From NCBI RefSeq assembly GCF_003325355.1, contig NZ_CP030850.1, positions 5,883,501 through 5,947,500 of the forward strand: DNA of 64,000 nt. The letters run 5' to 3'. The DNA comes from Runella rosea (GTDB taxonomy: Bacteria > Bacteroidota > Bacteroidia > Cytophagales > Spirosomataceae). A program made the position numbers and the translations under genes. The notes under the pieces are model-generated. The model did not search any database. It worked only from the letters and a program-made list of their open reading frames with translations, and was not told the origin of the DNA. The first letter of the stretch is position 1. Every line of letters begins with the position of its first letter. Positions 47,414 through 60,782 of this stretch are shown one piece after another.

Positions 47414-48799
47414 TTATTTGTTTCCGATTTCGTATTTGTCGTTGTACTTTTTGTACTGGCGTTTGTGGCGGTCGTCAAGGTCGGTCTTACGGCCCCTGAT
47501 GAAAGCGTGTTCAATGCCGTTGGAGCGCATATCCAGAATGTCGCCTTTGCAGACTACGAGTGTGGCTAGCTTCCCTTTTTCCAACGTCCCTACCTGTTTG
47601 TCAACGCCGAGAATTTTGGCGGGGGTAGACGTAATCATTTTTAACGCTTCTTCGCGGTCGAGGTTGCCAAATCCCGCGGCGGTTCCAGCCACAAAGGGCA
47701 AGTTGCGCGTACGCCAATAGGCTTCGCCGTAGCTTAATGCAACCGTGACCCCCGCTTTTTGCAACAACGAAGGCAGCTGATACGGCTGATACACAGGCTC
47801 ATCCTGACGGTTGGGGAGGCGGTGCGTTTCTCCCAACACCACAGGAATATTGTTTTCTTTCAAAAAATCTACCACCCTGAGCGCATCTTCCGCTCCCACA
47901 ATGACTGGTTTCTGAACCCCGTGCGATTTGGCAAATTTGACGGCTTCGATAATGTCTTTGCTGTTGTCGGCGCGGATGTACAAATTTTGATTTCCGCTAA
48001 AAAGACCCCGCAACGCTTCCAATTTGAGATTGGTAATGCTGGGATTTTTGATCTGGCTGTATGCGCTAGCATCCGAAAACAATTGCGCAAGATTATTGAT
48101 TACCTCCTGACGACGGCTGTTTCGCTGTAGGCTTACCGAAAAATCCTCAAAGTTGAATTCGCGGGTAAAAAACGGTGGCCACGTTAGCCACAAGCCGTCG
48201 TCTTTTTTCAGAACGGCATCCTCCCAATTCCATCCGTCGAGTTCCATCACTGATGACGAACCCGAAATCGTGCCCCCTTGGGGAGTCGCTTGGGTAAGCA
48301 ATAATCCATTGTTACGCAAAGTAGGAATAACCTCAGAATCAGTGTTATAAGCAACCAATGCCCGAACGTTAGGATTGAGCGCCCCGATTTCCTGATTGTC
48401 GGTAGTGGCCCGAACTGAGCTAATTTCGACCAAACCCGTTGTGGCACCCATCGCAATGAGGCCCGGATAGAGGTGTTTACCAGTTACATCAATGACTTCG
48501 GTGGCGTTACGGTCAAAAGTTGTGCTTGCATCGCCTACGGCGGTAAGGATTCCTTTATCAAATACCACCGTTCCTTTGTCAATCACGGTGCCGTTGCCTA
48601 CATGAACCGTGCCGCCCACCAGTGCAATAGGCTTGGTTTGGGGCTTCGCCGGCGCGGGGTTTTGGGCCGATACGGGCTGAAATAAGAGGCCAGAAATAAG
48701 CAGTAGGAAATAAGAAATAGGCTGTAAGAAATAAGATGCCTGAGCAAAATATAACTTTTTGACTTTTATGGGATAGTTAGAAGGTCTTCCAGTTCTCAT
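47414..48799 (-). CDS. Amidohydrolase-like protein lacking the metal motif
   Basis: The only ATG codons that open this frame (48799 and 48820) lie inside the 3' end of the preceding four-helix-bundle gene; I use 48799, which gives 461 residues. A signal peptide follows (SYFLQPISYFLLLISGLL, ending near VSAQ). The body has the composite amidohydrolase fold: VGGTVHVGNGTVID, GKHLYPGLIAM, and a C-terminal DREEALKMITSTPAKILGVD with GKLATLVV. At the place of the metal-binding HxH after PGLI it has MGATTG, and later ligands are also missing, so it is probably not an active hydrolase. It follows a larger paralogue on the same strand. Confidence 0.8.
   Translation of the reverse strand: MRTGRPSNYPIKVKKLYFAQASYFLQPISYFLLLISGLLFQPVSAQNPAPAKPQTKPIALVGGTVHVGNGTVIDKGTVVFDKGILTAVGDASTTFDRNATEVIDVTGKHLYPGLIAMGATTGLVEISSVRATTDNQEIGALNPNVRALVAYNTDSEVIPTLRNNGLLLTQATPQGGTISGSSSVMELDGWNWEDAVLKKDDGLWLTWPPFFTREFNFEDFSVSLQRNSRRQEVINNLAQLFSDASAYSQIKNPSITNLKLEALRGLFSGNQNLYIRADNSKDIIEAVKFAKSHGVQKPVIVGAEDALRVVDFLKENNIPVVLGETHRLPNRQDEPVYQPYQLPSLLQKAGVTVALSYGEAYWRTRNLPFVAGTAAGFGNLDREEALKMITSTPAKILGVDKQVGTLEKGKLATLVVCKGDILDMRSNGIEHAFIRGRKTDLDDRHKRQYKKYNDKYEIGNK
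48679..48735. repeat. 7-nt phased repeat inside the signal-peptide coding part
   Basis: GAAATAAG begins at 48679, 48693, 48707 and 48728, and GAAATAG at 48714, so all copies are at multiples of 7 nt. Because 21 nt equals 7 codons, the protein shows a heptad copy too (SYFLQPI, then SYFLLLI). The array lies on the 3' side of the S23-type gene; a similar array in inverse orientation lies on its other side. Confidence 0.8.
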
Positions 48800-49154
48800 G
48801 TAATTTCGAAAGTTTAGCACCGAGATATTCAGTATCGGTAGTTAGTTCTTTGTATGATTCTTGACTAATATATAGACAATCTAAAGCGAATAATAACCAA
48901 CATTTAGTCTCTTCAAGGGAGCCGATGGAGTCGATTAAATGTCTTTTGAATGTATTTTCAAATCTTCGCTTTCCCCAACCTTCTGCAATATTTGCTGCAA
49001 CGGAGCGAGAGGAACGTCGTATTTGATCGGTTAAGGAGTATTTTTCTTCAGAGGGAAATTTTGTGCTGAGCCAAAAAATTTTCATGGCTAATTGATGAGC
49101 CAAAGTATAAACTTGTAAATCTCGGAAAGTTTGGATTGGTGTTCTATTATCCAT
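48777..49154 (-). CDS. Four-helix bundle protein (S23 / IVP family)
   Basis: The 125-residue protein has the family features: an opening TFRDLQVYTLAHQLAMKIF, then SLTDQIRRSSRSVAANIAEG, and a C-terminal helix with KWL-type residues (ETKCWLLFALDCLYIS). The family was first seen in intervening sequences of 23S rRNA genes and later found scattered in bacteria; related Avd proteins serve in diversity-generating retroelements. No rRNA or retroelement is present here. It sits between two amidohydrolase genes and is flanked by inverted 7-nt phased repeats, which suggests insertion as a cassette. Its last codons overlap the start of the next gene. Confidence 0.92.
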   Translation of the reverse strand: MDNRTPIQTFRDLQVYTLAHQLAMKIFWLSTKFPSEEKYSLTDQIRRSSRSVAANIAEGWGKRRFENTFKRHLIDSIGSLEETKCWLLFALDCLYISQESYKELTTDTEYLGAKLSKLHENWKTF

Positions 49155-49165
49155 GATTTGTAAAA

Positions 49166-49200
49166 TTCTGAGCTCCTACGTCTTACTTCCTATTTCTTTT
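49166..49200. repeat. 7-nt phased repeat on the 5' side of the S23-type gene
   Basis: Successive heptamers TTCTGAG (49166), CTCCTAC (49173), GTCTTAC (49180), TTCCTAT (49187) and TTCTTTT (49194) share a common pattern and on the minus strand resemble GAAATAG and GAAGTAA. They are inverse to the array at 48679-48735. The array overlaps the last codons of the 1013-residue amidohydrolase gene. Confidence 0.6.
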
Positions 49201-52200
49201 CCCCCTCGCTTTGCTCTTCGCCTTCTGCCATAACGCCCTCTACATCTTCGCAATGCCACATACGCTGACGGCGGAAAGGCGGACGGATGGCGGTAGCGCC
49301 ACCTGTTTTGGCCGAAATCATTTTTTGTACCAAACGAGCGCGTTCTTTTTCTACTTCGTCGCGTCGTTTGTCATCGCCCTCTGTGGAGTAGTAAATCGCC
49401 CCTTCAACAATGGTATAGTCAGGACGGGCGTAGATCGAAAGCGGGTGGTTGTTCCACAATACCAAATCGGCATCTTTGCCCGTCTTGATGCTGCCCGTAC
49501 GTTTATCTAAGTGCATAATTTTGGCAGGGTTGATGGTCACCATTTTGAGGGCTTCGGTTTCGGCGATGCCGCCGTATTCCACTGCTTTGGCGGCTTCTTG
49601 ATTCAGGCGGCGGGCCATTTCGGCGTCGTCGGAGTTGATGCTGGTCAATACGCCTACTTTGGTCAAAATGGCAGCATTGTACGGAATCGCGTCTTTTACT
49701 TCCATTTTATATGCCCACCAGTCGGCAAAGGATGAACCTGCGGCCCCGTGTTTTTTCATTTTATCGGCTACTTTATAACCCTCTAAAATGTGCGTAAACG
49801 TGTTGATTTTGAAGCCTAAAGAATCAGCGACTTTTAGAAGCATATTGATTTCGGATTGTACGTACGAATGACATGTAATGAAGCGTTTAGCGTTGAGAAT
49901 TTCAACCAACGCGTCTAGTTCAATATCACGGCGAGGCACGGGCATTCCGATTTTGGTCTTCATCGAATTGTACGAATCCCAAGCGCGCTCATACTCGCGG
50001 GCACGGGTGAAATGATCCATAAATACCTGCTCAACGCCCATCCGCGTCTGCGGATAACGGCTCGTTGGATTGCCGCTGTTGGCCTGTTTTACGTTTTCAC
50101 CCAAGGCAAATTTGATAAACTGTGCTTCGGGCAGGAGCATCTCCGAAACATTGCCGCCCCATTTCAATTTTACCACGGCCGATTGCCCGCCGATGGAATT
50201 TGCGGAGCCGTGCAACAATTGCGACATGGTGACGCCGCCCGCCAATTGACGGTAAATATTGATATCGTCGGGGTTGATAACATCGCTCATGCGTACTTCG
50301 GCGGAACTGGATTGACCACCTTCGTTGATGGAGAAAAGCGCGATGTGTGAGTGCTCGTCGATAATACCCGGCGTCAGGTGTTTGCCTGTACCGTCAATCA
50401 CGCGGGCGTTGGCGGCAGAGAGGTTTTTGCCAATGCGGGCAATTTTACCATTTTCAACCAATACATCACTGTTTGGCAGCATCCCTGCGTCGTCGCTGGT
50501 CCAAACGCTGGCATTTTTAATCAACAACGTTTCTGATTTTGGTTTCTCGGCATTCCCAAATCCAACAAATGGAAACAGGGGTTTTCCTACATTCGGAGCA
50601 GGTTTGCGGGTTGAATCGCGGCGTGCTTCGGCCAATTTTATCGGCTCCTGTAGGGCCGCTTCCCACTTGGTAGGGGTGCCTTTGGCGGTTTCTCCGCTTC
50701 CTTTAAAGCCCGTTCCTTCCCGATAACCCGTCAGGCGAGTGGTGGCGTTGGGGGCTTTTCTGTCGGGTTGAAAATTGAGCGAAATCAGGTCGTTGAGGTA
50801 AGTTACTTTCGGCGTAATTTTCACAGTATCGCTCAGTACAATTTGATAATCAGGCTTCTCGGGTTTTCCAGTAATGATTAATTTCCCCTTTTCGGTCTCC
50901 ATGCTTAAGTTGTACGTTCCCCTAATATCGGCTTGGTTGAGGTTGTTGATGATGTATTTTTTACCCCGAATCCAGTTTTCGTAGATGACATTGTCTGCGT
51001 TGAACAAATTGCCCGAAGTAATGATAAAATTGGCCCAAGCGCCCGTTTTGAGGCTTCCTACTTTATCATCACATTTGAGGAGTTGGGCGGGAATCGCCGT
51101 GAGGGCTTCAAGGGCTTTGGTTTCCGACAAACCGTATTCAATGGCTTTGCGTAGGTTGGTCCAAAATTCCGTTTTTGTTTTGAGCAATGCCGAAGTCAGT
51201 ACAAAATTAACGCCCGCTTTTTCCAAGGCCGCCGCGTTGGCGGGAGCCATTTCCCAGTGTTTCATTTCGGCAAGGCTCACGTTGTCGGCATCCCAAACAT
51301 CTTCTACATCGAAGGCTGCTGGGAAGTTGAGCGGAACAATGAGCGTGCCACCCGACGCTTTTATTTCGTCAATGCGCTGGTATTCATCGCCATTGCCACG
51401 AAAAATGTATTGTGTTTTGAATTCATCACCCAGTTTGTCGGCCCTGAGCAAGCTCCATTTGTCGGTTGCTTCAAATACGGTCGGCAATCCGCTCAGGGCA
51501 TTAAAAGCATCGAGTGAGATGTTGTATTCAACATTTTTGCCCGCGTTTTTATACCATTCGGCATCGTAGTAGGTTTGGCGCAACAACGCCATTGCGCCCA
51601 TGGGTGAGTTGGGATATTGTTGGCCAGAAGAGCCTTTGCTGAACGATAAATGGGCAGAAACAGGACTACGAACAATGACGCTGTTTTCGCTGTCGGTAGC
51701 CAAAGTCACGAGCGCGCCGCTACCGCGTACGATGCCGTCGTGGTGGTGAGTGAGCACCGTAGCAAAGCCTAATTTGCGCAGCTCATCGGCTTTGGCATTG
51801 TTGACGGCAAATAATTTTCCTGCTTCTGTTTCGGGATTCAGGGCCTGATTCCAGCCGTAAGCACCTTTTTTATTGGATTCAATCTGCTGCGGTGCGCCGC
51901 GTCCGCCGCCTTGGGTGCGTTTGACTTCGGGCATTCCGTAGTCCGATTCCATGTCAATCAGGGCAGGATAGATGCGCTTGCCTTTGAGGTCGGTTACGAC
52001 GGTTCCGTTGGGAATTTGTAGGTCTTTGCCCACGCCAACGATTACGCCGTTTTTAATGATTAAAGTGCCATTTTCGAGTACGTTGCGTGCGTCAATGTAA
52101 ATGGTTGCGTTGGTGAAAGCGTACAATTCGGGGCGCTCGTCATACACGCCGTTGCGCGGAAAAGTGGGCGTTTGGGCCCAGATGTACGAACATACCGATA

Positions 52201-52231
52201 GTGTGATGAGAAGTGTAATCAGTTTTTTCAT
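49190..52231 (-). CDS. Tandem amidohydrolase family protein, secreted
   Basis: The 1013-residue protein has a signal peptide (MKKLITLLITLSVCSYIWAQ) and two amidohydrolase modules. The first (about residues 35-440) has the fold signatures VLENGTLIIKNG and GKRIYPALID but carries MESDYG where the HxH metal ligands should be. The second (about 570-980) is complete: LTPGIIDEHSHIALF gives HSH, and ITCHSYVQSE, FTHILEG and TSINSDDAEM provide the later ligands. The second half is therefore a likely periplasmic hydrolase of a cyclic or linear amide, while the first may be structural. The C-terminal tail is Glu-rich and low in complexity. It is the first gene of a leftward unit. Confidence 0.88.
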   Translation of the reverse strand: MKKLITLLITLSVCSYIWAQTPTFPRNGVYDERPELYAFTNATIYIDARNVLENGTLIIKNGVIVGVGKDLQIPNGTVVTDLKGKRIYPALIDMESDYGMPEVKRTQGGGRGAPQQIESNKKGAYGWNQALNPETEAGKLFAVNNAKADELRKLGFATVLTHHHDGIVRGSGALVTLATDSENSVIVRSPVSAHLSFSKGSSGQQYPNSPMGAMALLRQTYYDAEWYKNAGKNVEYNISLDAFNALSGLPTVFEATDKWSLLRADKLGDEFKTQYIFRGNGDEYQRIDEIKASGGTLIVPLNFPAAFDVEDVWDADNVSLAEMKHWEMAPANAAALEKAGVNFVLTSALLKTKTEFWTNLRKAIEYGLSETKALEALTAIPAQLLKCDDKVGSLKTGAWANFIITSGNLFNADNVIYENWIRGKKYIINNLNQADIRGTYNLSMETEKGKLIITGKPEKPDYQIVLSDTVKITPKVTYLNDLISLNFQPDRKAPNATTRLTGYREGTGFKGSGETAKGTPTKWEAALQEPIKLAEARRDSTRKPAPNVGKPLFPFVGFGNAEKPKSETLLIKNASVWTSDDAGMLPNSDVLVENGKIARIGKNLSAANARVIDGTGKHLTPGIIDEHSHIALFSINEGGQSSSAEVRMSDVINPDDINIYRQLAGGVTMSQLLHGSANSIGGQSAVVKLKWGGNVSEMLLPEAQFIKFALGENVKQANSGNPTSRYPQTRMGVEQVFMDHFTRAREYERAWDSYNSMKTKIGMPVPRRDIELDALVEILNAKRFITCHSYVQSEINMLLKVADSLGFKINTFTHILEGYKVADKMKKHGAAGSSFADWWAYKMEVKDAIPYNAAILTKVGVLTSINSDDAEMARRLNQEAAKAVEYGGIAETEALKMVTINPAKIMHLDKRTGSIKTGKDADLVLWNNHPLSIYARPDYTIVEGAIYYSTEGDDKRRDEVEKERARLVQKMISAKTGGATAIRPPFRRQRMWHCEDVEGVMAEGEEQSEGEKK

Positions 52232-52400: not shown

Positions 52401-52853
52401 CTACAACTGCACTTCGGTGGAGTACTTCACATCGTGCAATACCACTATACTGCTGTGGACTTTTACCATCGGGATTTCGGCAAATGATTTTAAGAAGCTG
52501 TCGTATTCTTTGATGTCTTTGACGAGGACTTTCAGTTGATAATCAACCATCCCGGCCAGATGATAACATTCCATTACCTGCGGCATTTGGCGGACAATTT
52601 TCTCAAATGTCTCGATGTTTTCGGTGGTATAAACGGGCATCGAAACGTTGCAAAACACTACTTGTCCGCGTCCTACTTTCTCGGGGTTTACCAATGCCAC
52701 ATAATTATTGATGTAGCCTTCTTTTTCCAAGCGTTTGATACGTTCAAAAACGGGGGAGGTGGTTAGGTGAAGGGCTTCGGCCAATTCTTTGATGGTCAAC
52801 TTGGCGTTTTGCTGCAACAACGCCAAAATACGGAGGTCAGTTTCGTCAAGCAT
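52401..52853 (-). CDS. Lrp/AsnC family transcriptional regulator
   Basis: The 150-residue protein begins LDETDLRILALLQQNAKL and has the winged helix-turn-helix of the family (TIKELAEALHLTTSPVFERI), then the RAM/AsnC ligand-binding domain (VYTTENIETFEKIVR, CYHLAGMVDYQLKVLV). Such proteins sense amino acids and control their transport and metabolism. The gene is divergent from the D-aminoacylase fusion gene, 218 nt away, and an Lrp-like box lies just before its own start. It is thus the likely regulator of that operon and of itself. Confidence 0.93.
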   Translation of the reverse strand: MLDETDLRILALLQQNAKLTIKELAEALHLTTSPVFERIKRLEKEGYINNYVALVNPEKVGRGQVVFCNVSMPVYTTENIETFEKIVRQMPQVMECYHLAGMVDYQLKVLVKDIKEYDSFLKSFAEIPMVKVHSSIVVLHDVKYSTEVQL

Positions 52854-52889
52854 AATTTGCTTTTGGGAGGAGGTATTTGACTTTATTTA

Positions 52890-52904
52890 AAGCAAAATAT
52901 GCTT
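52890..52904. promoter_or_regulatory. Lrp-type binding site between the regulator and the operon
   Basis: AAGCAAAATATGCTT matches the enteric Lrp consensus YAGHAWATTWTDCTR at 12 of 15 positions by my count and is nearly palindromic. It lies 37 nt upstream of the lrp-like start codon. A second dyad, ATTCTTT-TTTT-AAAGAAT (52940-52957), is in the same gap. Confidence 0.5.
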
Positions 52905-53071
52905 ATTTTTTGTAAAATTCTATTTTTTATGACTAATAAATTCTTTTTTTAAAGAATAAAAGACTATTTTCGTTCACACTTCATCAACATTTAAGAATCA
53001 AACGGTAGGCTCCTTGTACGCTTTGCCACCTTCTTCCTGAATCTTTTATCGAAATTTTCAACCCCAACTTT

Positions 53072-55600
53072 ATGGCAGCCAAACGATTCTTTTCGGTACT
53101 CTGTGTGCTGTTGAGCATTCAGCTTTCTTACGCTCAATACAGTCCTTCAAAATTGAAAACGTTGGATTCGGCATTGACAATTTTGCACCAACGGGCATCT
53201 TTTAGCGGGGTGGTTTTGGTGGCAGAAAATGGAAAAACCGTGTACAAAAAGGCGTTGGGTATCGCTAATTTGGCCTTGCAAGAGCCGCTCAAAACAACCT
53301 CTTCCTTCAATTTGGCTTCGGTTTCAAAGCAATTCATGGCGATGATGGTCATGATGTTGAAAGAAAAAGGAAAACTACAATTTGACGATAAGGTTCAGCA
53401 ACATTTACCCGATTTTCCCTACGAAAAGATAAGCATTCGGCACCTGCTCACCCACACGAGCGGCTTGCCCGAATATTTTGAGTTGGCCCAGAAACACAAC
53501 AATACGCTGGATACGCTGACCAACGAAAAGCTGCTTCAATTGTTGAAAACCCACCAACCCAACCTAGAATTTGGCGTAGGAGAAAAATGGGAGTACAACA
53601 ATACAGGCTATGTGATTCTGGCGTCGGTGATTGAGAAAGCGGCGGGGATGCCCATTGAAGATTTCTTTAAACAACAGATTACGAGGCCGTTGGGGATGAA
53701 TGATACCTACATTTATTGCCTTCGTATGAAACAATCACCCGTCAATCGGGTAATGGGTTATCAGCGAAAAAACGGACGGAATGTACCTAATGATTTAATT
53801 CGTTTGGACGGAGTCGTTGGCGATGGCAATGTGTATTCTTCGGTCGAAGATTTGCTGAAATGGGATCAGGCGCTGTACACTCAAAAACTGGTCAGTGCCG
53901 CTACGTGGCAGGAGGCCATAACGCCGGTTAAATTCAACAACGGTCAAACACATCCTTATGGCTTTGCTTGGTTTATCGAAAATGACGGGAAGGTGCTGTC
54001 ACACACGGGAAGTTGGGTCGGATTTTTCAATGAGATTATCCGAAATATCGAAAAAAAACAAACGATTATTATCCTTTCCAACTCTACCGATGCGACGGTA
54101 AGGAAAGTGGTAAAGGACGTTTTGGCGGGTAACGTACTGAAGTTGCCCAAAACTGAACTGATTTCAAACATTAAACTCATTGACGGGTCGGGCACTGCTA
54201 GTCGGCCAGCGGCTGTACGTTTGAGAGACGACAAGATATGGGAAGTCGGTGATTTAGTGCCTTTCCCTAACGAACCCGTGACCGAGGGAAAAGGAATGAC
54301 GCTTGCACCGGGTTTTATTGACAGCCACAGCCACCATTTTGGCGGCTTGGAAGAGCATCCCGACGGGATTGCGGCGCTCAATCAGGGAATTACGACGATT
54401 GTAACTGGGCAAGACGGAGGCAGTACTCCGATGGATACGATACAAAGTTTTTTCAAAAAACGACCCGTTGCCATCAACGTCGCCACTTATACGGGACATT
54501 CTACATTGCGGGCCAAAGCGATGGGAGCCAAGAGTTTATACCGAACCGCCAAGCCAGAGGAGGTAGAAAAGATGAAGAACTTGCTGCGGGATGAAATGAA
54601 CAAAGGCTCGCTGGGATTGGCGACGGGGTTGGAATATGAGTCGGCTTTTTTTTCCAATCGAGACGAAGTATTGACACTAGCCAAAGTGGCGGCGGAGTTG
54701 GGCGGACGGTACATGAGCCATATTCGTAGTGAGGATATTAATCTGGATGAAGCCATTGACGAAATCATTGAAATCGGCCAACAAACGAAAATGCCCGTGC
54801 AGATTTCGCACATCAAAATTGCTAAACGTGACCAATGGGGAAATGCGTTGGCGCTGTTGGGCAAGCTCCAAAAAGCACGCGCTCAAGGGGTAAATATCAC
54901 GGCCGATTGTTACCCCTACGATTTTTGGAACTCTACGTTGCGGGTGCTTTTTCCCAACCGCGATTATACAAATAGTGCAAGTGCTGAGTTTGCCGTAACT
55001 CAGCTGTGTGACCCCGAAAAATCGGTGGTCGTGCGGTTTGCGCCCAATAAAGATTATGCGGGAAAAACCCTTTCTCAAATTGCCACGCTTCGCCAAGAAA
55101 AACCCGCCCAAACTTTGATGGCTTTGATTGCACAAGCGGCTGATTTTGAGGAGAGAAATCCAGATTATGAGGGTGGAATTGAGGCGATTATGGGGAAGTC
55201 GATGGATGAGTCCGATATTGCGGATTTCCTGAGTTGGTCGCACACAAATATCTGTTCCGATGGCGCATGGCGTGGGCATCCCCGTGGTCACGGGGCTTTT
55301 ACGCGGGTATTGGGAACGTACGTACGCGACAAAAAAATCATGCCTTTAGAAACCGCCATTCACAAAATGACGGGGCTAACGGCGGAGCATTTGGGGATGA
55401 CTGACCGTGGAATTGTACAATCGGGGTACTATGCTGATTTGGTGCTGCTAAACCCCGAAACCGTGAAAGACAACGCCAATATTCAAAATTCTACCGCGCT
55501 TTCGTCGGGAATTGAAAAAGTATGGGTCAACGGTCAACTCGTTTATGAGTCGCAGAAAACCACGGGTAAATTTCCTGGGGTATTTATCAAAAGACAATAG
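53072..55600 (+). CDS. Serine hydrolase (beta-lactamase family) fused to an N-acyl-D-amino-acid deacylase
   Basis: The 842-residue protein has a signal peptide (to about residue 22), then a class C beta-lactamase/D-peptidase domain with SVSK (Ser83, Lys86), YNN (Tyr175) and HTG (311-313). From about residue 364 follows an amidohydrolase domain of the D-aminoacylase family: LIDGSGT, then GFIDSHSHH (His419, His421), GLATGLEY, SHIRSED, ISHIKI and RGHPRGHGAF. The Cys usually found in the GNCG-type motif is replaced by Asp (GQDGG). The two halves could first cut D-amino-acid peptides or esters and then deacylate the product, in the periplasm. The next gene follows 54 nt downstream. Confidence 0.9.
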   Translation: MAAKRFFSVLCVLLSIQLSYAQYSPSKLKTLDSALTILHQRASFSGVVLVAENGKTVYKKALGIANLALQEPLKTTSSFNLASVSKQFMAMMVMMLKEKGKLQFDDKVQQHLPDFPYEKISIRHLLTHTSGLPEYFELAQKHNNTLDTLTNEKLLQLLKTHQPNLEFGVGEKWEYNNTGYVILASVIEKAAGMPIEDFFKQQITRPLGMNDTYIYCLRMKQSPVNRVMGYQRKNGRNVPNDLIRLDGVVGDGNVYSSVEDLLKWDQALYTQKLVSAATWQEAITPVKFNNGQTHPYGFAWFIENDGKVLSHTGSWVGFFNEIIRNIEKKQTIIILSNSTDATVRKVVKDVLAGNVLKLPKTELISNIKLIDGSGTASRPAAVRLRDDKIWEVGDLVPFPNEPVTEGKGMTLAPGFIDSHSHHFGGLEEHPDGIAALNQGITTIVTGQDGGSTPMDTIQSFFKKRPVAINVATYTGHSTLRAKAMGAKSLYRTAKPEEVEKMKNLLRDEMNKGSLGLATGLEYESAFFSNRDEVLTLAKVAAELGGRYMSHIRSEDINLDEAIDEIIEIGQQTKMPVQISHIKIAKRDQWGNALALLGKLQKARAQGVNITADCYPYDFWNSTLRVLFPNRDYTNSASAEFAVTQLCDPEKSVVVRFAPNKDYAGKTLSQIATLRQEKPAQTLMALIAQAADFEERNPDYEGGIEAIMGKSMDESDIADFLSWSHTNICSDGAWRGHPRGHGAFTRVLGTYVRDKKIMPLETAIHKMTGLTAEHLGMTDRGIVQSGYYADLVLLNPETVKDNANIQNSTALSSGIEKVWVNGQLVYESQKTTGKFPGVFIKRQ

Positions 55601-55654
55601 CAATCAACAAAGCCTAAACGCCTTTTTGGAGGCGATAAAGAAGAGGTACACATC

Positions 55655-56716
55655 ATGAACAAAGCAATTATTTTAACCAATGGCCTGCTTACCACCAACG
55701 ATGCAAAAACAGCACATGGCTTGATTCGGGGCACCGAGCGTTACGAAATCGTCGGAGTAATTGACCCGCCTACAGCGGGCCGCGACGCAGGCGACGTGCT
55801 GGATGGAAAAGCCAGAAATATCCCCATTTTTGATTCATTGTCAAGTGCACTTATTCAGTTACAAAAGATTGATTATCTGATTATTGGGGTAGCAACGGTG
55901 GGGGGTGTTTTACCAGAAAATATGTTTGGTATTGTAAAAGAAGCTATCCAACAGCAGATTTCCATCGTCAATGGGTTGCACGAATACTTGAGCGAAAAAC
56001 CTGAACTAGTTGCGTTGGCGACGCAATATCAAGTGCAGTTGATTGATGTTCGTAAACCCAAATCCCGCCAAGATTTACATTTCTGGACGGGAGAAATTTA
56101 CGATGTAACTGTTCCGATTATTGCGGTCATCGGCATGGATTGTGCGCTGGGAAAACGCACCACGGCGCGGATGGTTCGTCAGATGTGTGAAAGCCAAGGA
56201 ATAAACGCCCAGATGATTTATACGGGGCAAACGGGCTGGTTACAAGGCGGCAAATACGGCTTTATTTTTGACTCAACCCTTAACGATTTTGTGTCGGGGG
56301 AGGTCGAACACGCGATTGTTTCGTGTTGGAAAGAAACCCAGGCCGATGTGATTTTGGTAGAAGGGCAATCATCCCTACGCAACCCTAGCGGGCCGTGCGG
56401 GTTGGAGTTTTTGATTTCTGGTAATGCCAAACACGTTATTTTGGTTCATTCACCCAAACGAAAATATTTTGACAACGAACCCCATTGGGGCAGGATTCCG
56501 AGTGTAGAATCAGAAGTGGAAATCATTGAAAAATTTGGGGCAAAAGTAATTGCCTTGGCTTTAAATACGGAAGATTGCTCAACGCAGGAATCGCTTGATT
56601 ACCAGAAACATTACGAGCAACAATTGCAAATTCCTGTGTTGCTACCATTGGAAGAAGGGGTGGAGAAGTTGATGCCAACTTTGAAAGAATTGACGCGCTT
56701 GAACGTAGAGCATTGA
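55655..56716 (+). CDS. dgcN: DUF1611 family protein, probable D-glutamate N-acetyltransferase DgcN
   Basis: The 353-residue product has an N-terminal Rossmann-like domain (IILTNGLL, VGVIDPPTAGRDAGDVL) and a C-terminal P-loop domain with GMDCALGKRTT (Lys167), YTGQTGWLQGG and VEGQSSL, the full DUF1611 layout. From published work as I recall it, DUF1611 includes DgcN, which acetylates D-glutamate so that its partner DgcA can racemise it. The following gene here encodes just such a partner, which supports the assignment. Other DUF1611 proteins are poorly known, so substrate identity remains inferred. Confidence 0.82.
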   Translation: MNKAIILTNGLLTTNDAKTAHGLIRGTERYEIVGVIDPPTAGRDAGDVLDGKARNIPIFDSLSSALIQLQKIDYLIIGVATVGGVLPENMFGIVKEAIQQQISIVNGLHEYLSEKPELVALATQYQVQLIDVRKPKSRQDLHFWTGEIYDVTVPIIAVIGMDCALGKRTTARMVRQMCESQGINAQMIYTGQTGWLQGGKYGFIFDSTLNDFVSGEVEHAIVSCWKETQADVILVEGQSSLRNPSGPCGLEFLISGNAKHVILVHSPKRKYFDNEPHWGRIPSVESEVEIIEKFGAKVIALALNTEDCSTQESLDYQKHYEQQLQIPVLLPLEEGVEKLMPTLKELTRLNVEH

Positions 56717-56772
56717 TGACACAAACGAGGCTGATTAAGAAGGATTTAGGCCGTTAACCTTTGGGCTTTTTC

Positions 56773-57834
56773 ATGAAAATAAAATCGATTCGTGCTTATC
56801 TCAAAAATCTGGCGTTGAGTAAGCCTTACAGCATTGCGGGGTATACGTTTTCGGACGTAGAAAATGTATTTTTGGAAGTAGAGCTGGAAAATGGCATGGT
56901 GGGCAAGGGAGCAGCAAGCCCCGCAGAAGAAGTAGTGGGGGAAACTTGCAAACAGACTTTTAAAAACTGCCAATCTATATTTTTTGAAAACCTTGTAGGA
57001 CGGGATATTCGGCATTTTCGGCAGTTGATTGATGAAGTAAAACGCCATTTCCGGCAGTTGCCTGGCACGCAGGCCGCCCTTGATATTGCCCTTCACGATG
57101 CCTTCGGGCAGTTTTTAGGTATTCCAGTGGTGGAGTTTTACGGACAAAAAATAACGCAACTGCCTACATCCGTAACCATCGGAATCATGTCGGTGGAGAA
57201 TACGCTCAGAGAGGCGGCAGAATACTTCAGACTGGGCTTTAAAGTATTGAAAGTGAAAACGGGCGAGAATGTTGAGCAAGATATTGAGCGAGTTTTGAAA
57301 TTGCACGAACGTTTTCAAAACAAACTCAAAATTAGAGTCGATGCCAACCAAGGTTACGCATTGGTTGATTTACAAAGGTTTTTAAGAGATACACAAGCCG
57401 TTGATTTAGAATTGATTGAGCAGCCTTTGCCCGTGGGAAAAGAGCCAGAATTACTTAATTTGAAAGTGGAAGAACGGCGGCTTTTAACGGCTGATGAGTC
57501 TCTCAAAGATGCGCATTATGCGTTGCAATTGGCACAACAACCGCAACCTTTCGGTAGTTTCAACATCAAACTGATGAAATGCGGTGGAATCCTAAGCGCG
57601 TTGGAAATTGCTAACATTGCCCAACACGCGGGCATAGACCTTTTTTGGGGTTGCAATGATGAAAGCATCGTGAGCATTACGGCGGCACTACACGCGGCAT
57701 TTGCCTGTTCCAACACCCGTTACCTTGATTTGGACGGTAGTTTTGACTTGGCCGAGGATGTGGTAAGTGGCGGGTTCATCTTAGAAAATGGATGTATGAA
57801 ATTGACCAGAAAGGCGGGGTTGGGACTTAGTTAA
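56773..57834 (+). CDS. dgcA: Enolase-superfamily epimerase, probable N-acetyl-D-Glu racemase DgcA
   Basis: The ATG at 56773 gives 353 residues beginning MKIKSIRAYL; a TTG 12 nt earlier is also in frame. It has the muconate-lactonising/dipeptide-epimerase layout: KVLKVKTG (Lys160, Lys162), metal ligands Asp190 (DANQGY), Glu216 (EQPLP) and Asp241 (ADES), and the second catalytic lysine at NIKLMK (Lys266). The LDLDGSFDL motif near the end resembles the DxD of L-Ala-D/L-Glu epimerases. Beside a DUF1611 gene the best reading is N-acetyl-D-glutamate racemase; a murein dipeptide epimerase is the main alternative. It lies 56 nt after dgcN. Confidence 0.82.
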   Translation: MKIKSIRAYLKNLALSKPYSIAGYTFSDVENVFLEVELENGMVGKGAASPAEEVVGETCKQTFKNCQSIFFENLVGRDIRHFRQLIDEVKRHFRQLPGTQAALDIALHDAFGQFLGIPVVEFYGQKITQLPTSVTIGIMSVENTLREAAEYFRLGFKVLKVKTGENVEQDIERVLKLHERFQNKLKIRVDANQGYALVDLQRFLRDTQAVDLELIEQPLPVGKEPELLNLKVEERRLLTADESLKDAHYALQLAQQPQPFGSFNIKLMKCGGILSALEIANIAQHAGIDLFWGCNDESIVSITAALHAAFACSNTRYLDLDGSFDLAEDVVSGGFILENGCMKLTRKAGLGLS

Positions 57835-57944
57835 AAAGCCGATAAGGGTCAAGTTGAAGGAAAGAAAACAGAAAATGATTGTTTTTTCCTAACTTCGTCT
57901 TGGTCAAATATTACTTTTTAACAGCATCCAAAAATCAGTGCGGT

Positions 57945-60782
57945 ATGACTAGGCGTGTTCCATTGCTTTTTTTTAGCCTTCTTTTTTCTTATTTTTCATT
58001 TGCTCAGAAAATTAACAAAGATTTTATTGACGGAGAAATATACCTAAAAGTTACTAATAAGCCCGTCGGAACTTTGACGGCTACCGTCAATTTCGAGAGA
58101 GAGCTTCCATTTTTAAAAGATTTTTCTACCGATTTTGTCCTGACAAAAATGAACCGTGCATTCTTCACCACAGGTTCTGAAAAACTTCAAAAAATATATC
58201 GCCTTACCGTAAAAAAACCGGATAAAATAGATGCGCTGATTGATTTGCTCAAGCAAAATCCCGAGGTTGAATACGTTGAGAAAGTACCTTTTCGCACTAT
58301 CATTGCCATGCCCAATGATTCGCTTGTGGGGTCACAATGGTCTTTAACTAAAATCAAAGCATTTGAAGCTTGGGAGGTAAATGCGGGCGATACAAACATA
58401 GTGGTGGCGGTGGTAGACAATGCCATTCAAACAAACCACGTTGATTTACAGGCGAATATGCTCCCAGGGCGTGATTTGTCAGATAACGACTATAACCCGA
58501 ATCCTCCCAATACCAGTTTCAGTCATGGTACACACGTGGCGGGAATCCTCAGCGCAGTGAGCAATAATACGGTGGGAATAGCGTCGGCCTCTAACAATCG
58601 AATCAAGATTTTGCCCGTAAAAGCAACGCCCGATGCTGGAAGCCCGCAGGGAATTTATAATGGATTTGAAGGCATCACTTGGGCGGCCGACAATGGGGCC
58701 CAAATTATCAGCCTCTCATGGGGCGGGGCAGGGTATTCGCAAGCCGAGCAGGAAGTGATTGATTATGTACATTCAAAAGGAATTGTGATTGTGGCGGCGG
58801 CTGGAAATAACAACAACGATGTGGAAAGTTTTCCAGCGGCGTATACGCATGTAATTTCGGTTGCCAGCCTTGATGCTGACGATAAGAGAAGCTCGTTTTC
58901 TACGTATGGTTCTTGGGTCGATATTTCGGCGCCAGGGCGCGGTATTTTAAGTACGGTTCCCACTGATGGATACGCCTCTTTTAATGGTACGTCGATGGCT
59001 ACTCCATTGGTAGCCAGCGTATTAGGTTATATATGGTCGTGCTCTCCTTCGTTGACTCCTGCGGAGCTTGAAAGTATTTTGGTCAACACGGCTGATAACA
59101 TCGACGCCGCTAATCCTACCCAAATTGGGCTTTTAGGAGCGGGTAGAATCAACTTGTTGAAGGCGATTTCTTGCTCCACACAGGGGATATTTTCGGCAAC
59201 GATTACGGCCAATGGCTCAACTTATCTTTGCCAAGGTGAATCAGTTACGTTGTCGGCCAATACAGGCCCTGGCCTAAGTTATCAATGGCTGATAAATGGG
59301 GAAGAGACCACGAATGCCGCTGATTCATTGGTGGTTAGTGCCGCCAATGACTACCAAGTGATAATTTCAAAACAGCAATGCGTTATCAATTCTGGTACGG
59401 TCAAGGTAAGAAACAATACGCTCACTACGGCGGCTCCGAGCGTAACCAACAAAGAGGCACCTTATTGTACGCCTTTAACCATCGGAAACGGATTGTTGGC
59501 CAATGCGGCTGACTGCAACTACGCAGGCCCGACGACTTTCACGTACAACGGCCCGACCATAGGTTATGATGGATTTAGTAAAAATGGAGATGATCCAAGC
59601 GTGAATGCCGCAGGCTTGGGTGGATTAATCACTTCGGTGAAAGTGTCGATCACGTGGGAGAAAAAAGACCAAGGCGATGAAAATACCTGTGATGCAGCGG
59701 ATGGGGGTGGTAAGCCGTTCAACGAAGAGGTTTCTTTTAAACTTAAATCTCCATCGGGAACGGTCATTACCTTGATTGCAGCAAACACTTATGCGTCTGG
59801 AACAACTACTTCGGGAATTGTAACGACGGTTTTTGAAGAGGGTGCAAGCCCAATACTTCTAAACTCACTTCCAGTGTCGGGTACATTTGCGCCCACTCAA
59901 TCATTTTCGGCTTTTATCAATGAAGAACCCGCTGGTGCATGGACGCTTTTGGCCGAAGACAATGGTTTTATTGACCCCTTGTGTGTCAAAAATTTTTCAG
60001 TCACCCTTACCACCAACAGCCCAGTGCTGGCACCGACCGTTACTTGGTGGGATTCTGCCACTGGTGGAGCGCTTTTAGGCTCTGGAGCGGAGTATTTAGC
60101 CTTGACGACGACGGTCGGAGTGCAGACCTATTATGTGCAGTCCAGATGCGAAGGGCTTTGCCCCAGCCCTAGAACGCCCGTTACGCTGACGGTTAGGCCT
60201 GTACCTCAAGTCTATGTATTTCCGATTTCAATGAACTTAGCCAATGACAGTACGTTCAACAATTTTCTAAAAAATCAACCACTTCAGGTGACTAAAGATA
60301 CTAGTAATCAGTATATAATAGTTGATTCGACCATGGTAGGAGGTGTAGTTATTGGCAATACGCCACCGTTGACAAGCCCCGTCACGCTTTGTACGACGAA
60401 AACGTATTTGCTGCTGGCCATTGGTTGTCCAACGAATAAACTCTCGTGGTCGAATGGTAAAAAAAGTCAAGCGCTTCTCGTCACGCCATCCATGCCGATA
60501 AATTATTCGGCCACCTGCACAGATTCTATCGCTTCCTGCGCGCCCATTACGTCCAATACCGTCGCTTTTGTATCGCCGCTGACGAATGTATTGATTATGG
60601 ATAAAATTTACGCCAATTCGGTGCAGACTTTTACGGGAATGACCATTACGGCTTCTAATGAAATAGAAACCCCCGCCCAAATTCAATACCGAGCCAACAA
60701 TGCCATTCTCCTAAACCCAGGTTTTAGCGCAAGCGGAAACAGTGTTTTTACGGCGCAGGTCGGAACAGGTTGTGAAAATTAA
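57945..60782 (+). CDS. Secreted subtilisin-like (S8) serine protease
   Basis: The ATG at 57945 gives 945 residues and a proper signal peptide (VPLLFFSLLFSYFSFAQ). A short propeptide region precedes the S8 domain, whose triad is Asp158 (VVDNAI), His194 (SHGTHVAG) and Ser350 (NGTSMATP). An Ig-like domain follows (YLCQGESVTLSAN, QWLINGEE), then a P-domain-like sandwich (SFKLKSPSG, GAWTLLAEDN), another Ig-like part, and a final segment AILLNPGFSASGNSVFTA found in many Bacteroidota surface proteins. A classical type IX sorting domain is not obvious at the C-terminus. It probably degrades protein outside the cell and could feed the upstream amino-acid operon, but this link is only positional. Confidence 0.92.
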   Translation: MTRRVPLLFFSLLFSYFSFAQKINKDFIDGEIYLKVTNKPVGTLTATVNFERELPFLKDFSTDFVLTKMNRAFFTTGSEKLQKIYRLTVKKPDKIDALIDLLKQNPEVEYVEKVPFRTIIAMPNDSLVGSQWSLTKIKAFEAWEVNAGDTNIVVAVVDNAIQTNHVDLQANMLPGRDLSDNDYNPNPPNTSFSHGTHVAGILSAVSNNTVGIASASNNRIKILPVKATPDAGSPQGIYNGFEGITWAADNGAQIISLSWGGAGYSQAEQEVIDYVHSKGIVIVAAAGNNNNDVESFPAAYTHVISVASLDADDKRSSFSTYGSWVDISAPGRGILSTVPTDGYASFNGTSMATPLVASVLGYIWSCSPSLTPAELESILVNTADNIDAANPTQIGLLGAGRINLLKAISCSTQGIFSATITANGSTYLCQGESVTLSANTGPGLSYQWLINGEETTNAADSLVVSAANDYQVIISKQQCVINSGTVKVRNNTLTTAAPSVTNKEAPYCTPLTIGNGLLANAADCNYAGPTTFTYNGPTIGYDGFSKNGDDPSVNAAGLGGLITSVKVSITWEKKDQGDENTCDAADGGGKPFNEEVSFKLKSPSGTVITLIAANTYASGTTTSGIVTTVFEEGASPILLNSLPVSGTFAPTQSFSAFINEEPAGAWTLLAEDNGFIDPLCVKNFSVTLTTNSPVLAPTVTWWDSATGGALLGSGAEYLALTTTVGVQTYYVQSRCEGLCPSPRTPVTLTVRPVPQVYVFPISMNLANDSTFNNFLKNQPLQVTKDTSNQYIIVDSTMVGGVVIGNTPPLTSPVTLCTTKTYLLLAIGCPTNKLSWSNGKKSQALLVTPSMPINYSATCTDSIASCAPITSNTVAFVSPLTNVLIMDKIYANSVQTFTGMTITASNEIETPAQIQYRANNAILLNPGFSASGNSVFTAQVGTGCEN

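What the first reader, a model, noticed from the sequence alone, without database searches (positions are those of the whole stretch)
52401..57834. Probable D-amino-acid (D-glutamate) salvage operon under a divergent Lrp-type regulator
Three plus-strand genes with 54- and 56-nt gaps encode a serine hydrolase/D-aminoacylase fusion, a DUF1611 (DgcN-like) protein and an enolase-superfamily (DgcA-like) racemase. An Lrp/AsnC regulator is read divergently, with an Lrp-like box in the gap. From memory of the literature, DgcN and DgcA form a D-Glu to N-acetyl-D-Glu to N-acetyl-L-Glu route in marine bacteria. Here that pair is joined to an enzyme that could release D-amino acids from peptides or N-acyl forms, giving a possible full path from cell-wall fragments to L-Glu. 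The pairing with the fusion enzyme is the part I have not seen described.
Basis: partly seen in the sequence, partly recalled or inferred. Interest (0 to 1): 0.75.

Follow-up and report, generated by a model that had tools for sequence, protein, structure and literature searches.

The report
D-amino-acid salvage operon, not D-glutamate

Summary
In detail: divergent Lrp gene, 218-nt gap with a conserved palindromic box, then three plus-strand genes (54- and 56-nt gaps) for an S12-hydrolase/D-aminoacylase fusion with a signal-like start, a DUF1611 protein and an enolase-superfamily epimerase. The D-Glu reading does not hold. The epimerase is 49% identical to the Methylococcus dipeptide epimerase (PDB 3rit), 23-26% to DgcA, and groups with 3rit; two arginines conserved in DgcA are Gly and Glu here. 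DUF1611 lies outside the DgcN clade. Both fail the curated cut-offs, which real dgcN-dgcA pairs of other Bacteroidota pass. What is new is the module: in 150 family genomes 44 have both epimerase and DUF1611, 106 neither, and DUF1611 lies within 3.5 kb of 72 of 80 such epimerases in at least six phyla. The third gene varies (fusion, bare D-aminoacylase, another serine hydrolase, M55 D-aminopeptidase), mostly with signal-like starts. The operon's D-aminoacylase has Asp for the zinc-binding Cys in 53 of 62 aligned rows, all close homologues with that block. Most likely: an exported hydrolase releases D-residues, they are imported, and DUF1611 plus epimerase convert them to L. Substrate and DUF1611 chemistry are unproven.

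The parts
52401..52853 (-). Lrp/AsnC-family regulator, read divergently
   Evidence: Pfam AsnC_trans_reg and HTH_AsnC-type. A homologue over 100 bits is held by 13 of 43 other family loci.
52890..52904 (.). Lrp-box-like palindrome AAGCAAAATATGCTT
   Evidence: Identical in L033, L034, L057 and L067; AAGCAAATTATGCTT in L051; related palindromes such as AAGAATATTTTGCTT or AAGAATATTATTCTA in others. Consensus score alone is at chance level.
53072..53137 (+). signal-peptide-like start of the fusion protein (residues 1-22)
   Evidence: Hydropathy scan, a crude test and not SignalP.
53198..54109 (+). S12 (beta-lactamase / D-peptidase type) domain of the fusion protein
   Evidence: Pfam PF00144 8e-62. 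S83-x-x-K86, Y175-x-N177 and H311-T-G present.
54137..55600 (+). D-aminoacylase-type amidohydrolase domain of the fusion protein, with Asp448 at the place of the zinc-ligand Cys
   Evidence: PDB 9g5m, 1m7j and 3gip matches at 4.2e-59 or better. HxH, the two barrel His and the catalytic Asp are kept; NCG reads QDG.
55655..56716 (+). DUF1611 protein (Rossmann-like N-domain plus P-loop C-domain), non-DgcN clade
   Evidence: Pfam; best PDB 2g0t, then 2obn, then 7xrj; tree.
56773..57834 (+). enolase-superfamily dipeptide epimerase, Methylococcus (3rit) type
   Evidence: PDB 3rit 324 bits, 48.9% identity; K160/K162/K266, D190/E216/D241, DxD D319/D321.

Best explanation
A D-amino-acid / D-peptide salvage operon. 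The fusion protein, with a signal-like start, works outside the cytoplasm: its S12 and D-aminoacylase-type halves cut D-residues from cell-wall or other peptides or N-acyl forms. The products enter the cell; many relatives encode an APC permease after the epimerase, which this operon lacks. In the cytoplasm the DUF1611 protein and the dipeptide epimerase act as one module. The epimerase inverts the alpha-carbon of a peptide-bonded D-residue (two-lysine, Mg-enolate chemistry) so that ordinary peptidases can use it. DUF1611 most likely N-acylates or aminoacylates the free D-amino acid, because racemases of this superfamily act on amides rather than free amino acids (recalled). The preferred residue is probably not Glu and may be cationic or neutral. 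The Lrp protein probably senses amino acids and controls the divergent promoters. Shown by sequence: gene content, families, catalytic residues, clades, co-occurrence. Inferred: compartments, reaction order, substrate, regulation, DUF1611 chemistry.
For: DUF1611 and epimerase: 44 of 150 family genomes have both, 106 neither (two DUF hits of 22-25 bits counted as absent). Within 2.5 kb on one strand in 42 of 43 fetched family loci. DUF1611 within 3.5 kb, same strand, at 72 of 80 named loci of this epimerase type (58 of the 72 within 60 nt), in Bacteroidota, Gammaproteobacteria, Desulfobacterota-type bacteria, SAR324, Planctomycetota and Hydrogenedentota. Full-length fusion orthologue (over 1100 bits) in 30 of 150 genomes, all 30 with the pair, including 4 same-genus genomes where it lies elsewhere. 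In this genus 10 of 13 genomes have all three, 3 have none. Recurrent partners: D-aminoacylase 23 of 80 and Beta-lactamase2-type serine hydrolase 14 of 80 named loci, APC permease 31 of 43 family loci, M55 D-aminopeptidase in L128, M20 dipeptidase in L032. Signal-like N-termini on the fusions and most D-aminoacylases examined, on two serine hydrolases and the M55 protein; none on the window's DUF1611 or epimerase, the only ones of those checked. Lysines and metal acids kept in 131 of 131 clade rows. Two-lysine mechanism: PMC5808125, section 4 read.
Against: No biochemistry known to me for this clade of DUF1611. Signal peptides judged by a crude hydropathy scan. The window genome has no operon permease orthologue (best 35% identical), and the M20 of L032 also starts with a signal-like stretch, so the cytosolic last step has no linked gene. 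DxD is also present in DgcA, so it does not prove dipeptides. 9 of 25 linked fusions are divergent from the pair. 11 of 44 pair-holding genomes have neither fusion nor close D-aminoacylase. Two genomes without the pair (G084, G093) keep a 387-396-bit S12-only homologue of the fusion. 8 of 80 named loci have no DUF1611 in reach, one of them at a contig edge. Co-occurrence is not corrected for relatedness.
Confidence: 0.6

Rival explanations
1. One reading: DgcN-DgcA route. DUF1611 acetylates D-Glu, the epimerase racemises N-acetyl-D-Glu to N-acetyl-L-Glu.
For: Same two superfamilies side by side; DUF1611 keeps the core shared with DgcN (GxDxxxGK, TGQ, DF, EGQ).
Against: Both proteins fail the DgcN/DgcA model cut-offs, which L101, L102 and L143 pass; trees separate them; Arg at columns 23 and 53 of DgcA are Gly and Glu here.
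Confidence: 0.1
2. Murein recycling: the epimerase turns L-Ala-D-Glu into L-Ala-L-Glu, as YcjG and YkfB do.
For: Same subgroup of the superfamily; the best NCBIfam model is an L-Ala-D/L-Glu epimerase (212 bits, under its cut-off 500).
Against: No Arg at column 23 or 24, where YcjG/DgcA (23) and YkfB (24) have one (window; absent in 116 of 131 clade rows). That this Arg binds Glu is recalled. No NlpC/P60 or LD-carboxypeptidase domain among the 11 window proteins run against Pfam.
Confidence: 0.14
3. A specific form of the best explanation: catabolism of cationic dipeptides (Lys, Arg, Orn or diaminopimelate residues), as recalled for the Methylococcus enzyme. Its odds overlap with those of the best explanation.
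For: Asp296 is kept in 128 of 131 clade rows and in 3rit but not in YcjG, YkfB or DgcA; an acid at positions 51-53 in 109 of 131. The crystal ligand of 3rit and its cationic preference are recalled, not from a call.
Against: No structure with ligand could be examined; column 24 is Lys in 52 of 131 rows, which argues against a cation in part of the clade.
Confidence: 0.3
4. Biosynthesis or maturation of a D-residue-containing metabolite rather than catabolism.
For: Epimerisation is reversible; some distant relatives have threonine-synthase-like or creatininase/MftE-like partners.
Against: Where a third gene was identified in the window's family it is a hydrolase with a signal-like start (fusion 25, bare D-aminoacylase 3 of 43 loci), and an amino acid permease is present in 31 of 43.
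Confidence: 0.08

Closest known systems
Methylococcus capsulatus dipeptide epimerase (PDB 3rit/3ro6)
   Same: 48.9% identity over the full length, same clade, same WGC-x-DES and DLDGSFD blocks
   Different: Specificity loops (columns 22-30 and 51-53) differ; its own gene neighbourhood was not examined here. The species name is recalled; the call gives the molecule name only.
DgcN-DgcA D-glutamate pathway (EC 2.3.1.312 and 5.1.1.25)
   Same: DUF1611 protein plus enolase-superfamily racemase in tandem
   Different: Other clades of both families; Arg columns 23 and 53 not kept; different upstream enzyme; in three reference loci the pair comes with a LysR-type DgcR or a D-amino-acid transaminase
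YcjG / YkfB L-Ala-D/L-Glu epimerases with murein endopeptidase genes
   Same: Epimerase subgroup; idea of flipping a D-residue in a dipeptide for recycling (PMC5808125, section 4)
   Different: No Arg at column 23/24; DUF1611 partner; D-aminoacylase fusion instead of a murein endopeptidase gene
D-aminoacylases AfDam (1m7j), BbDam (3gip) and OngB
   Same: Same amidohydrolase type; HxH, barrel His pair and catalytic Asp kept (PMC12017989 passages)
   Different: Zinc-ligand Cys is Asp; fused to an S12 domain; signal-like start

Membership tests
DgcN (NF041892) | Curated score cut-off 480 bits | tested here: not met
   136 bits; controls L101, L102, L143 score 561, 545, 493
DgcN (NF041892) | Falls in the clade of annotated DgcN / PDB 7xrj | tested here: not met
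   Outside; the DgcN rows plus Bradyrhizobium L148 form a group at SH-aLRT 100, the window's side is split off at 98
DgcN (NF041892) | Acetyl-CoA-dependent N-acetylation of D-Glu | not testable with these tools
   Needs assay
DgcA (NF042940) | Curated score cut-off 400 bits | tested here: not met
   131 bits; controls L101, L102, L143 score 509, 501, 402
DgcA (NF042940) | Groups with annotated DgcA | tested here: not met
   The side with DgcA, YcjG, 4gfi and L148 is split from the window's side at SH-aLRT 100. DgcA itself is not one clade there: YcjG pairs with the Pseudoalteromonas row (88).
DgcA (NF042940) | Arg at columns 23 and 53 (5 of 5 DgcA rows) | tested here: not met
   Gly23 and Glu53; the role of these Arg is inferred
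Dipeptide epimerase (enolase superfamily) | KxK and second catalytic Lys, three metal acids | tested here: met
   K160, K162, K266; D190, E216, D241, each in 131 of 131 clade rows
Dipeptide epimerase (enolase superfamily) | DxD motif after the eighth strand (motif recalled) | tested here: met
   D319-L-D321, 129 of 131 rows, gaps in 2; also present in DgcA, so weak
Dipeptide epimerase (enolase superfamily) | Activity on dipeptides | not testable with these tools
   Needs assay
L-Ala-D/L-Glu epimerase | Curated cut-off of NF041118 (500 bits) or NF011708 (343) | tested here: not met
   212 and 68 bits
D-aminoacylase (subtype V amidohydrolase) | Zinc site Cys-His-His and catalytic Asp | tested here: not met
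   His550, His580, Asp730 and the HxH at 419-421 kept, but Cys is Asp448. It may still work like a D-aminoacylase.
S12 serine hydrolase | SxxK, YxN, (K/H)xG motifs (recalled) | tested here: met
   S83/K86, Y175/N177, H311-T-G313
Lrp/AsnC regulator | AsnC-type HTH and ligand-binding domain over Pfam cut-off | tested here: met
   57.7 and 59.8 bits against 27 and 25

The most novel reading that the evidence does not exclude
The DUF1611 clade paired with dipeptide epimerases is an acyltransferase or ligase that tags free D-amino acids with an amino-acid (or other acyl) group. The epimerase then flips the tagged residue, and a peptidase releases the L-amino acid: a general tag-flip-cleave pathway for D-amino acids, spread over at least six phyla, of which DgcN-DgcA (acetyl tag, D-Glu) would be one branch.
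Probability: 0.2. Interest if true: 0.85.

Novelty: new variant of a known kind. Interest (0 to 1): 0.55.

Why it matters
The in vivo role of many dipeptide epimerases and of most DUF1611 proteins is, as far as I know, open. An all-or-none pairing of the two over 150 genomes, kept across phyla and often next to some D-residue hydrolase, gives a direct, testable question: what compound does DUF1611 make for the epimerase? The Cys-to-Asp zinc ligand marks a separate D-aminoacylase subfamily. D-amino acids from cell walls are a nutrient pool, so a widespread use route in Bacteroidota would be of ecological interest. It also warns that 'DUF1611 plus enolase racemase' should not be annotated as DgcN-DgcA without a score or clade test.

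Tried and rejected
Rejected: DgcN-DgcA assignment (with positive controls). Rejected as diagnostic: the DxD motif, which DgcA shares. Rejected as chance-proof on its own: the Lrp box consensus score. Rejected: the downstream S8 protease and GH16 genes as operon members; among the 80 loci they directly follow the epimerase only in near relatives L033 and L034 (both) and, for GH16, L037, with a protease fragment at the edge of L045. Rejected: fusion as an invention of the window's family; fused forms also occur in MAGs or genomes titled Chitinophagaceae, Flavihumibacter and Saprospiraceae (L184, L178, L166). The tree needs four changes of the fused label, at least two forced by starred branches, so one gain with later loss of the S12 part, or repeated gain, cannot be told apart.

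Caveats on counts: Lrp was seen at only 2 of 80 named loci, but that test measured at most 3.5 kb from the epimerase and so misses Lrp genes beyond a fusion gene, as in L175. The ORF calls gave DUF1611 at 69 of 80 and missed some genes in GC-rich contigs; the tblastn recount gave 72. In the 40 phylum loci, 2 (L117, L139) had no DUF1611 ORF called and were dropped; 25 of the other 38 had an epimerase within 2.5 kb. The 131 clade rows were chosen by the W292-G293 motif, overlap in part (same genomes under two locus ids), and are not independent; 17 non-PDB rows without the motif and 8 PDB rows were left out, and 2 of 80 named loci were not added because the called ORF was too long. In one of the 30 fusion orthologues (G069) the tool reports an in-frame TAG, and G134 is cut by a contig end. 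The DgcN/DgcA reference set is small: three plasmid loci, two Bacteroidota loci, PDB 7xrj. Trees are quick IQ-TREE runs with SH-aLRT only, and several long branches are flagged.

Papers that I recall on DgcN-DgcA and on dipeptide epimerases are not held and nothing of them was read.
Full report
WHAT IS THERE. The window is G000:C1:5883501-5947500 of a 7.16 Mb genome. A same-genus genome, G111, has a 58,385-base contig of the same length and gene order as the one titled Runella sp. (L165), so the genus is probably Runella. The fusion starts with a signal-peptide-like stretch, then an S12 domain (residues 43-346) with all three motifs, then a D-aminoacylase-type domain.

EPIMERASE. By PDB sequence search the best match is 3rit/3ro6 'dipeptide epimerase', 324 bits over residues 1-352; the next is 182 bits. 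Identity is 48.9% to 3rit, 33.9% to 3jva, 27.8% to YkfB (1jpm), 25.5% to YcjG (1jpd) and 22.8-25.6% to three annotated DgcA. The tree of 56 rows puts it with 3rit and Bacteroidota relatives, split at SH-aLRT 100 from a side that holds the DgcA rows, YcjG, 4gfi and L148; DgcA is not one clade there, since YcjG pairs with one DgcA row at 88. Catalytic lysines and metal acids are kept in 131 of 131 clade rows. DgcA rows have Arg at columns 23 and 53 (5 of 5); the window has Gly and Glu. YkfB and 3rit have Arg at column 24; the window has Tyr. Arg at 23 or 24 is found in 15 of 131 clade rows. Asp296 is shared by 3rit and 128 of 131 rows. I read this as against a glutamate side chain. Cationic preference is a guess that leans on recalled facts about 3rit.

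DUF1611. It scores 136 bits on the DgcN model, cut-off 480. PDB order is 2g0t, 2obn, then 7xrj. 7xrj is close to the annotated Ruegeria DgcN (branches 0.018 and 0.0035). The window protein lies outside the DgcN group. The shared core is kept (G160, D162, G166-K167, T190-G191-Q192, D211-F212, G215, E218, E236-G237-Q238, R269), while many other conserved positions differ, for example W144, R168, T169, W195, Q197, N210, R242 and N243. So the chemistry may be alike and the substrate different. As a positive control, two other Bacteroidota loci (L101, L102) pass both the DgcN cut-off (561 and 545 bits) and the DgcA cut-off (509 and 501), as does the Pseudoalteromonas pair L143 (493 and 402): true dgcN-dgcA pairs exist in the phylum and the window's is not one.

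THE PAIR IS A MODULE. Searching 150 family genomes, DUF1611 gives 46 hits, of which two are weak fragments (22-25 bits, G025 and G077) that I do not count. The epimerase at E <= 1e-70 gives 44 hits, in exactly the other 44 genomes. I fetched all 43 besides the window's own. The epimerase is within 2.5 kb of DUF1611 on the same strand in 42 of 43 (one with an esterase gene between); the exception, L154, is a contig end. In the best 80 of 580 named relatives found with an alignment of this epimerase type, DUF1611 lies within 3.5 kb on the same strand in 72, in 58 of them within 60 nt. They include Desulfopila, Desulfobacterales, SAR324, Gammaproteobacteria, Planctomycetota and Hydrogenedentota. 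Eight have none in reach: L180 (contig edge), L186, L196, L202, L209, L214, L219, L223.

THE THIRD GENE. Family loci: fusion as one ORF in 25 of 43, 16 on the same strand and 9 divergent; a bare D-aminoacylase in 3 (L055, L154, L155); APC permease in 31 of 43; Lrp homologue in 13 of 43. Full-length fusion orthologues occur in 30 of 150 genomes and all 30 have the pair. In four same-genus genomes (G063, G086, G103, G129) the fusion gene is elsewhere in the genome, so co-occurrence does not rest on linkage alone. Of 13 genomes of the genus, 10 have fusion, DUF1611 and epimerase and 3 (G075, G119, G124) have none of these. Against this, 11 of the 44 pair-holding genomes have neither the fusion nor a close D-aminoacylase, and G084 and G093 keep an S12-only homologue without the pair. 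In the 80 named loci a D-aminoacylase occurs in 23 (19 close, 4 distant), a Beta-lactamase2-type serine hydrolase in 14, the permease in 14. Distant D-aminoacylases lie beside the module in Desulfopila (L212) and Planctomycetota (L241, L242). In the 40 phylum loci a threonine-synthase-like PLP gene is found in 8 and a creatininase-family gene in 4, all in a sister group; a Beta-lactamase2-type hydrolase in 4 and an M55 D-aminopeptidase in 1. The fusions and bare D-aminoacylases inspected in Bacteroidota carry signal-like starts save one truncated row (L169), as do two serine hydrolases (L131, L134) and the M55 protein (L128); L212 shows none, and L241 and L242 cannot be judged because their called ORFs are too long; the window's DUF1611 and epimerase show none (crude test). 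A D-residue hydrolase outside the cytoplasm that is swapped for another kind, beside a constant cytosolic pair, is the best clue to function.

A METAL-LIGAND CHANGE. PpOngB binds zinc with Cys, His, His and uses an Asp (PMC12017989, passages seen). In the alignment of 62 rows the NCG block with that Cys reads QDG in 53, the window among them; NCG in 5 (L212, L241, L242, 1m7j, 9g5m); E-G in 3 distant rows (L132, L133, one of two in L204) that are other amidohydrolases; and is missing in 1 truncated row.

REGULATION. The 218-nt gap holds AAGCAAAATATGCTT at 52890-52904; the same or a related palindrome begins 35-48 nt from the Lrp start in 12 of 13 relatives (judged by eye). As a lone consensus match it would be worth nothing.

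MECHANISM. Likely order: the fusion frees D-residues; import (permease not in this operon; best own-genome homologue 35% identical); DUF1611 prepares, epimerase inverts, peptidases finish. The two-lysine mechanism is from a review (PMC5808125, section 4). DUF1611 acylating the D-amino acid is inferred from DgcN and from the need of this superfamily for an amide (recalled).

LITERATURE. 'DUF1611' occurs in two held papers, both on Dickeya or its phages (listing only); 'PF07755' in none. DgcN, DgcA and D-glutamate together occur in one held paper (PMC10845958, one passage), and the two EC activities in another (PMC11747546, passages). One paper held both 'dipeptide epimerase' and 'D-aminoacylase' (PMC1431709, a superfamily gold-standard set, listing and abstract start only); no listing pointed to an operon of the two. 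The primary papers I tried are not held, and subscription journals are mostly missing, so this is weak evidence of novelty.

VERDICT. Observation confirmed; salvage idea kept; D-Glu assignment rejected; the real interest is the DUF1611-dipeptide-epimerase module and its exchangeable hydrolases.

Noticed in passing
47414-52231 (-): Two amidohydrolase genes (468 and 1013 aa) on the same strand as the Lrp gene and downstream of it, with a 125-aa 23S rRNA-intervening-sequence protein gene between them at 48777-49154. The amidohydrolase pair is kept beside the operon in L033, L034 and L037.
   Followed up: partly
57879-60782 (+): S8 subtilase with Ig_7 and a C-terminal coathanger-stack domain, 44 nt after the epimerase by its longest ORF; seen at this place only in the nearest relatives, where other genera have the permease.
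   Followed up: partly
L042 and L181 (Arsenicibacter): The S12 half of the fusion has lost Ser, Lys and Tyr of its catalytic motifs while the D-aminoacylase half is intact.
   Followed up: no
L142:6941-9192: On a Phaeobacter plasmid a DUF1611 gene (38.9% identical to the window's) overlaps by 4 nt a gene annotated as alanine/ornithine racemase family PLP enzyme: DUF1611 next to an unrelated racemase.
   Followed up: no
L108, L110-L114, L116, L121: Sister group of DUF1611-epimerase loci with a threonine-synthase-like PLP gene, and in some a creatininase/MftE-like gene; the epimerases of seven of these eight were aligned and lack the W292 motif.
   Followed up: partly
L105, L115, L118: Another DUF1611 clade in Bacteroidota lies next to aspartokinase-like or Orn/DAP-decarboxylase-like genes with no epimerase seen in the locus.
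   Followed up: no
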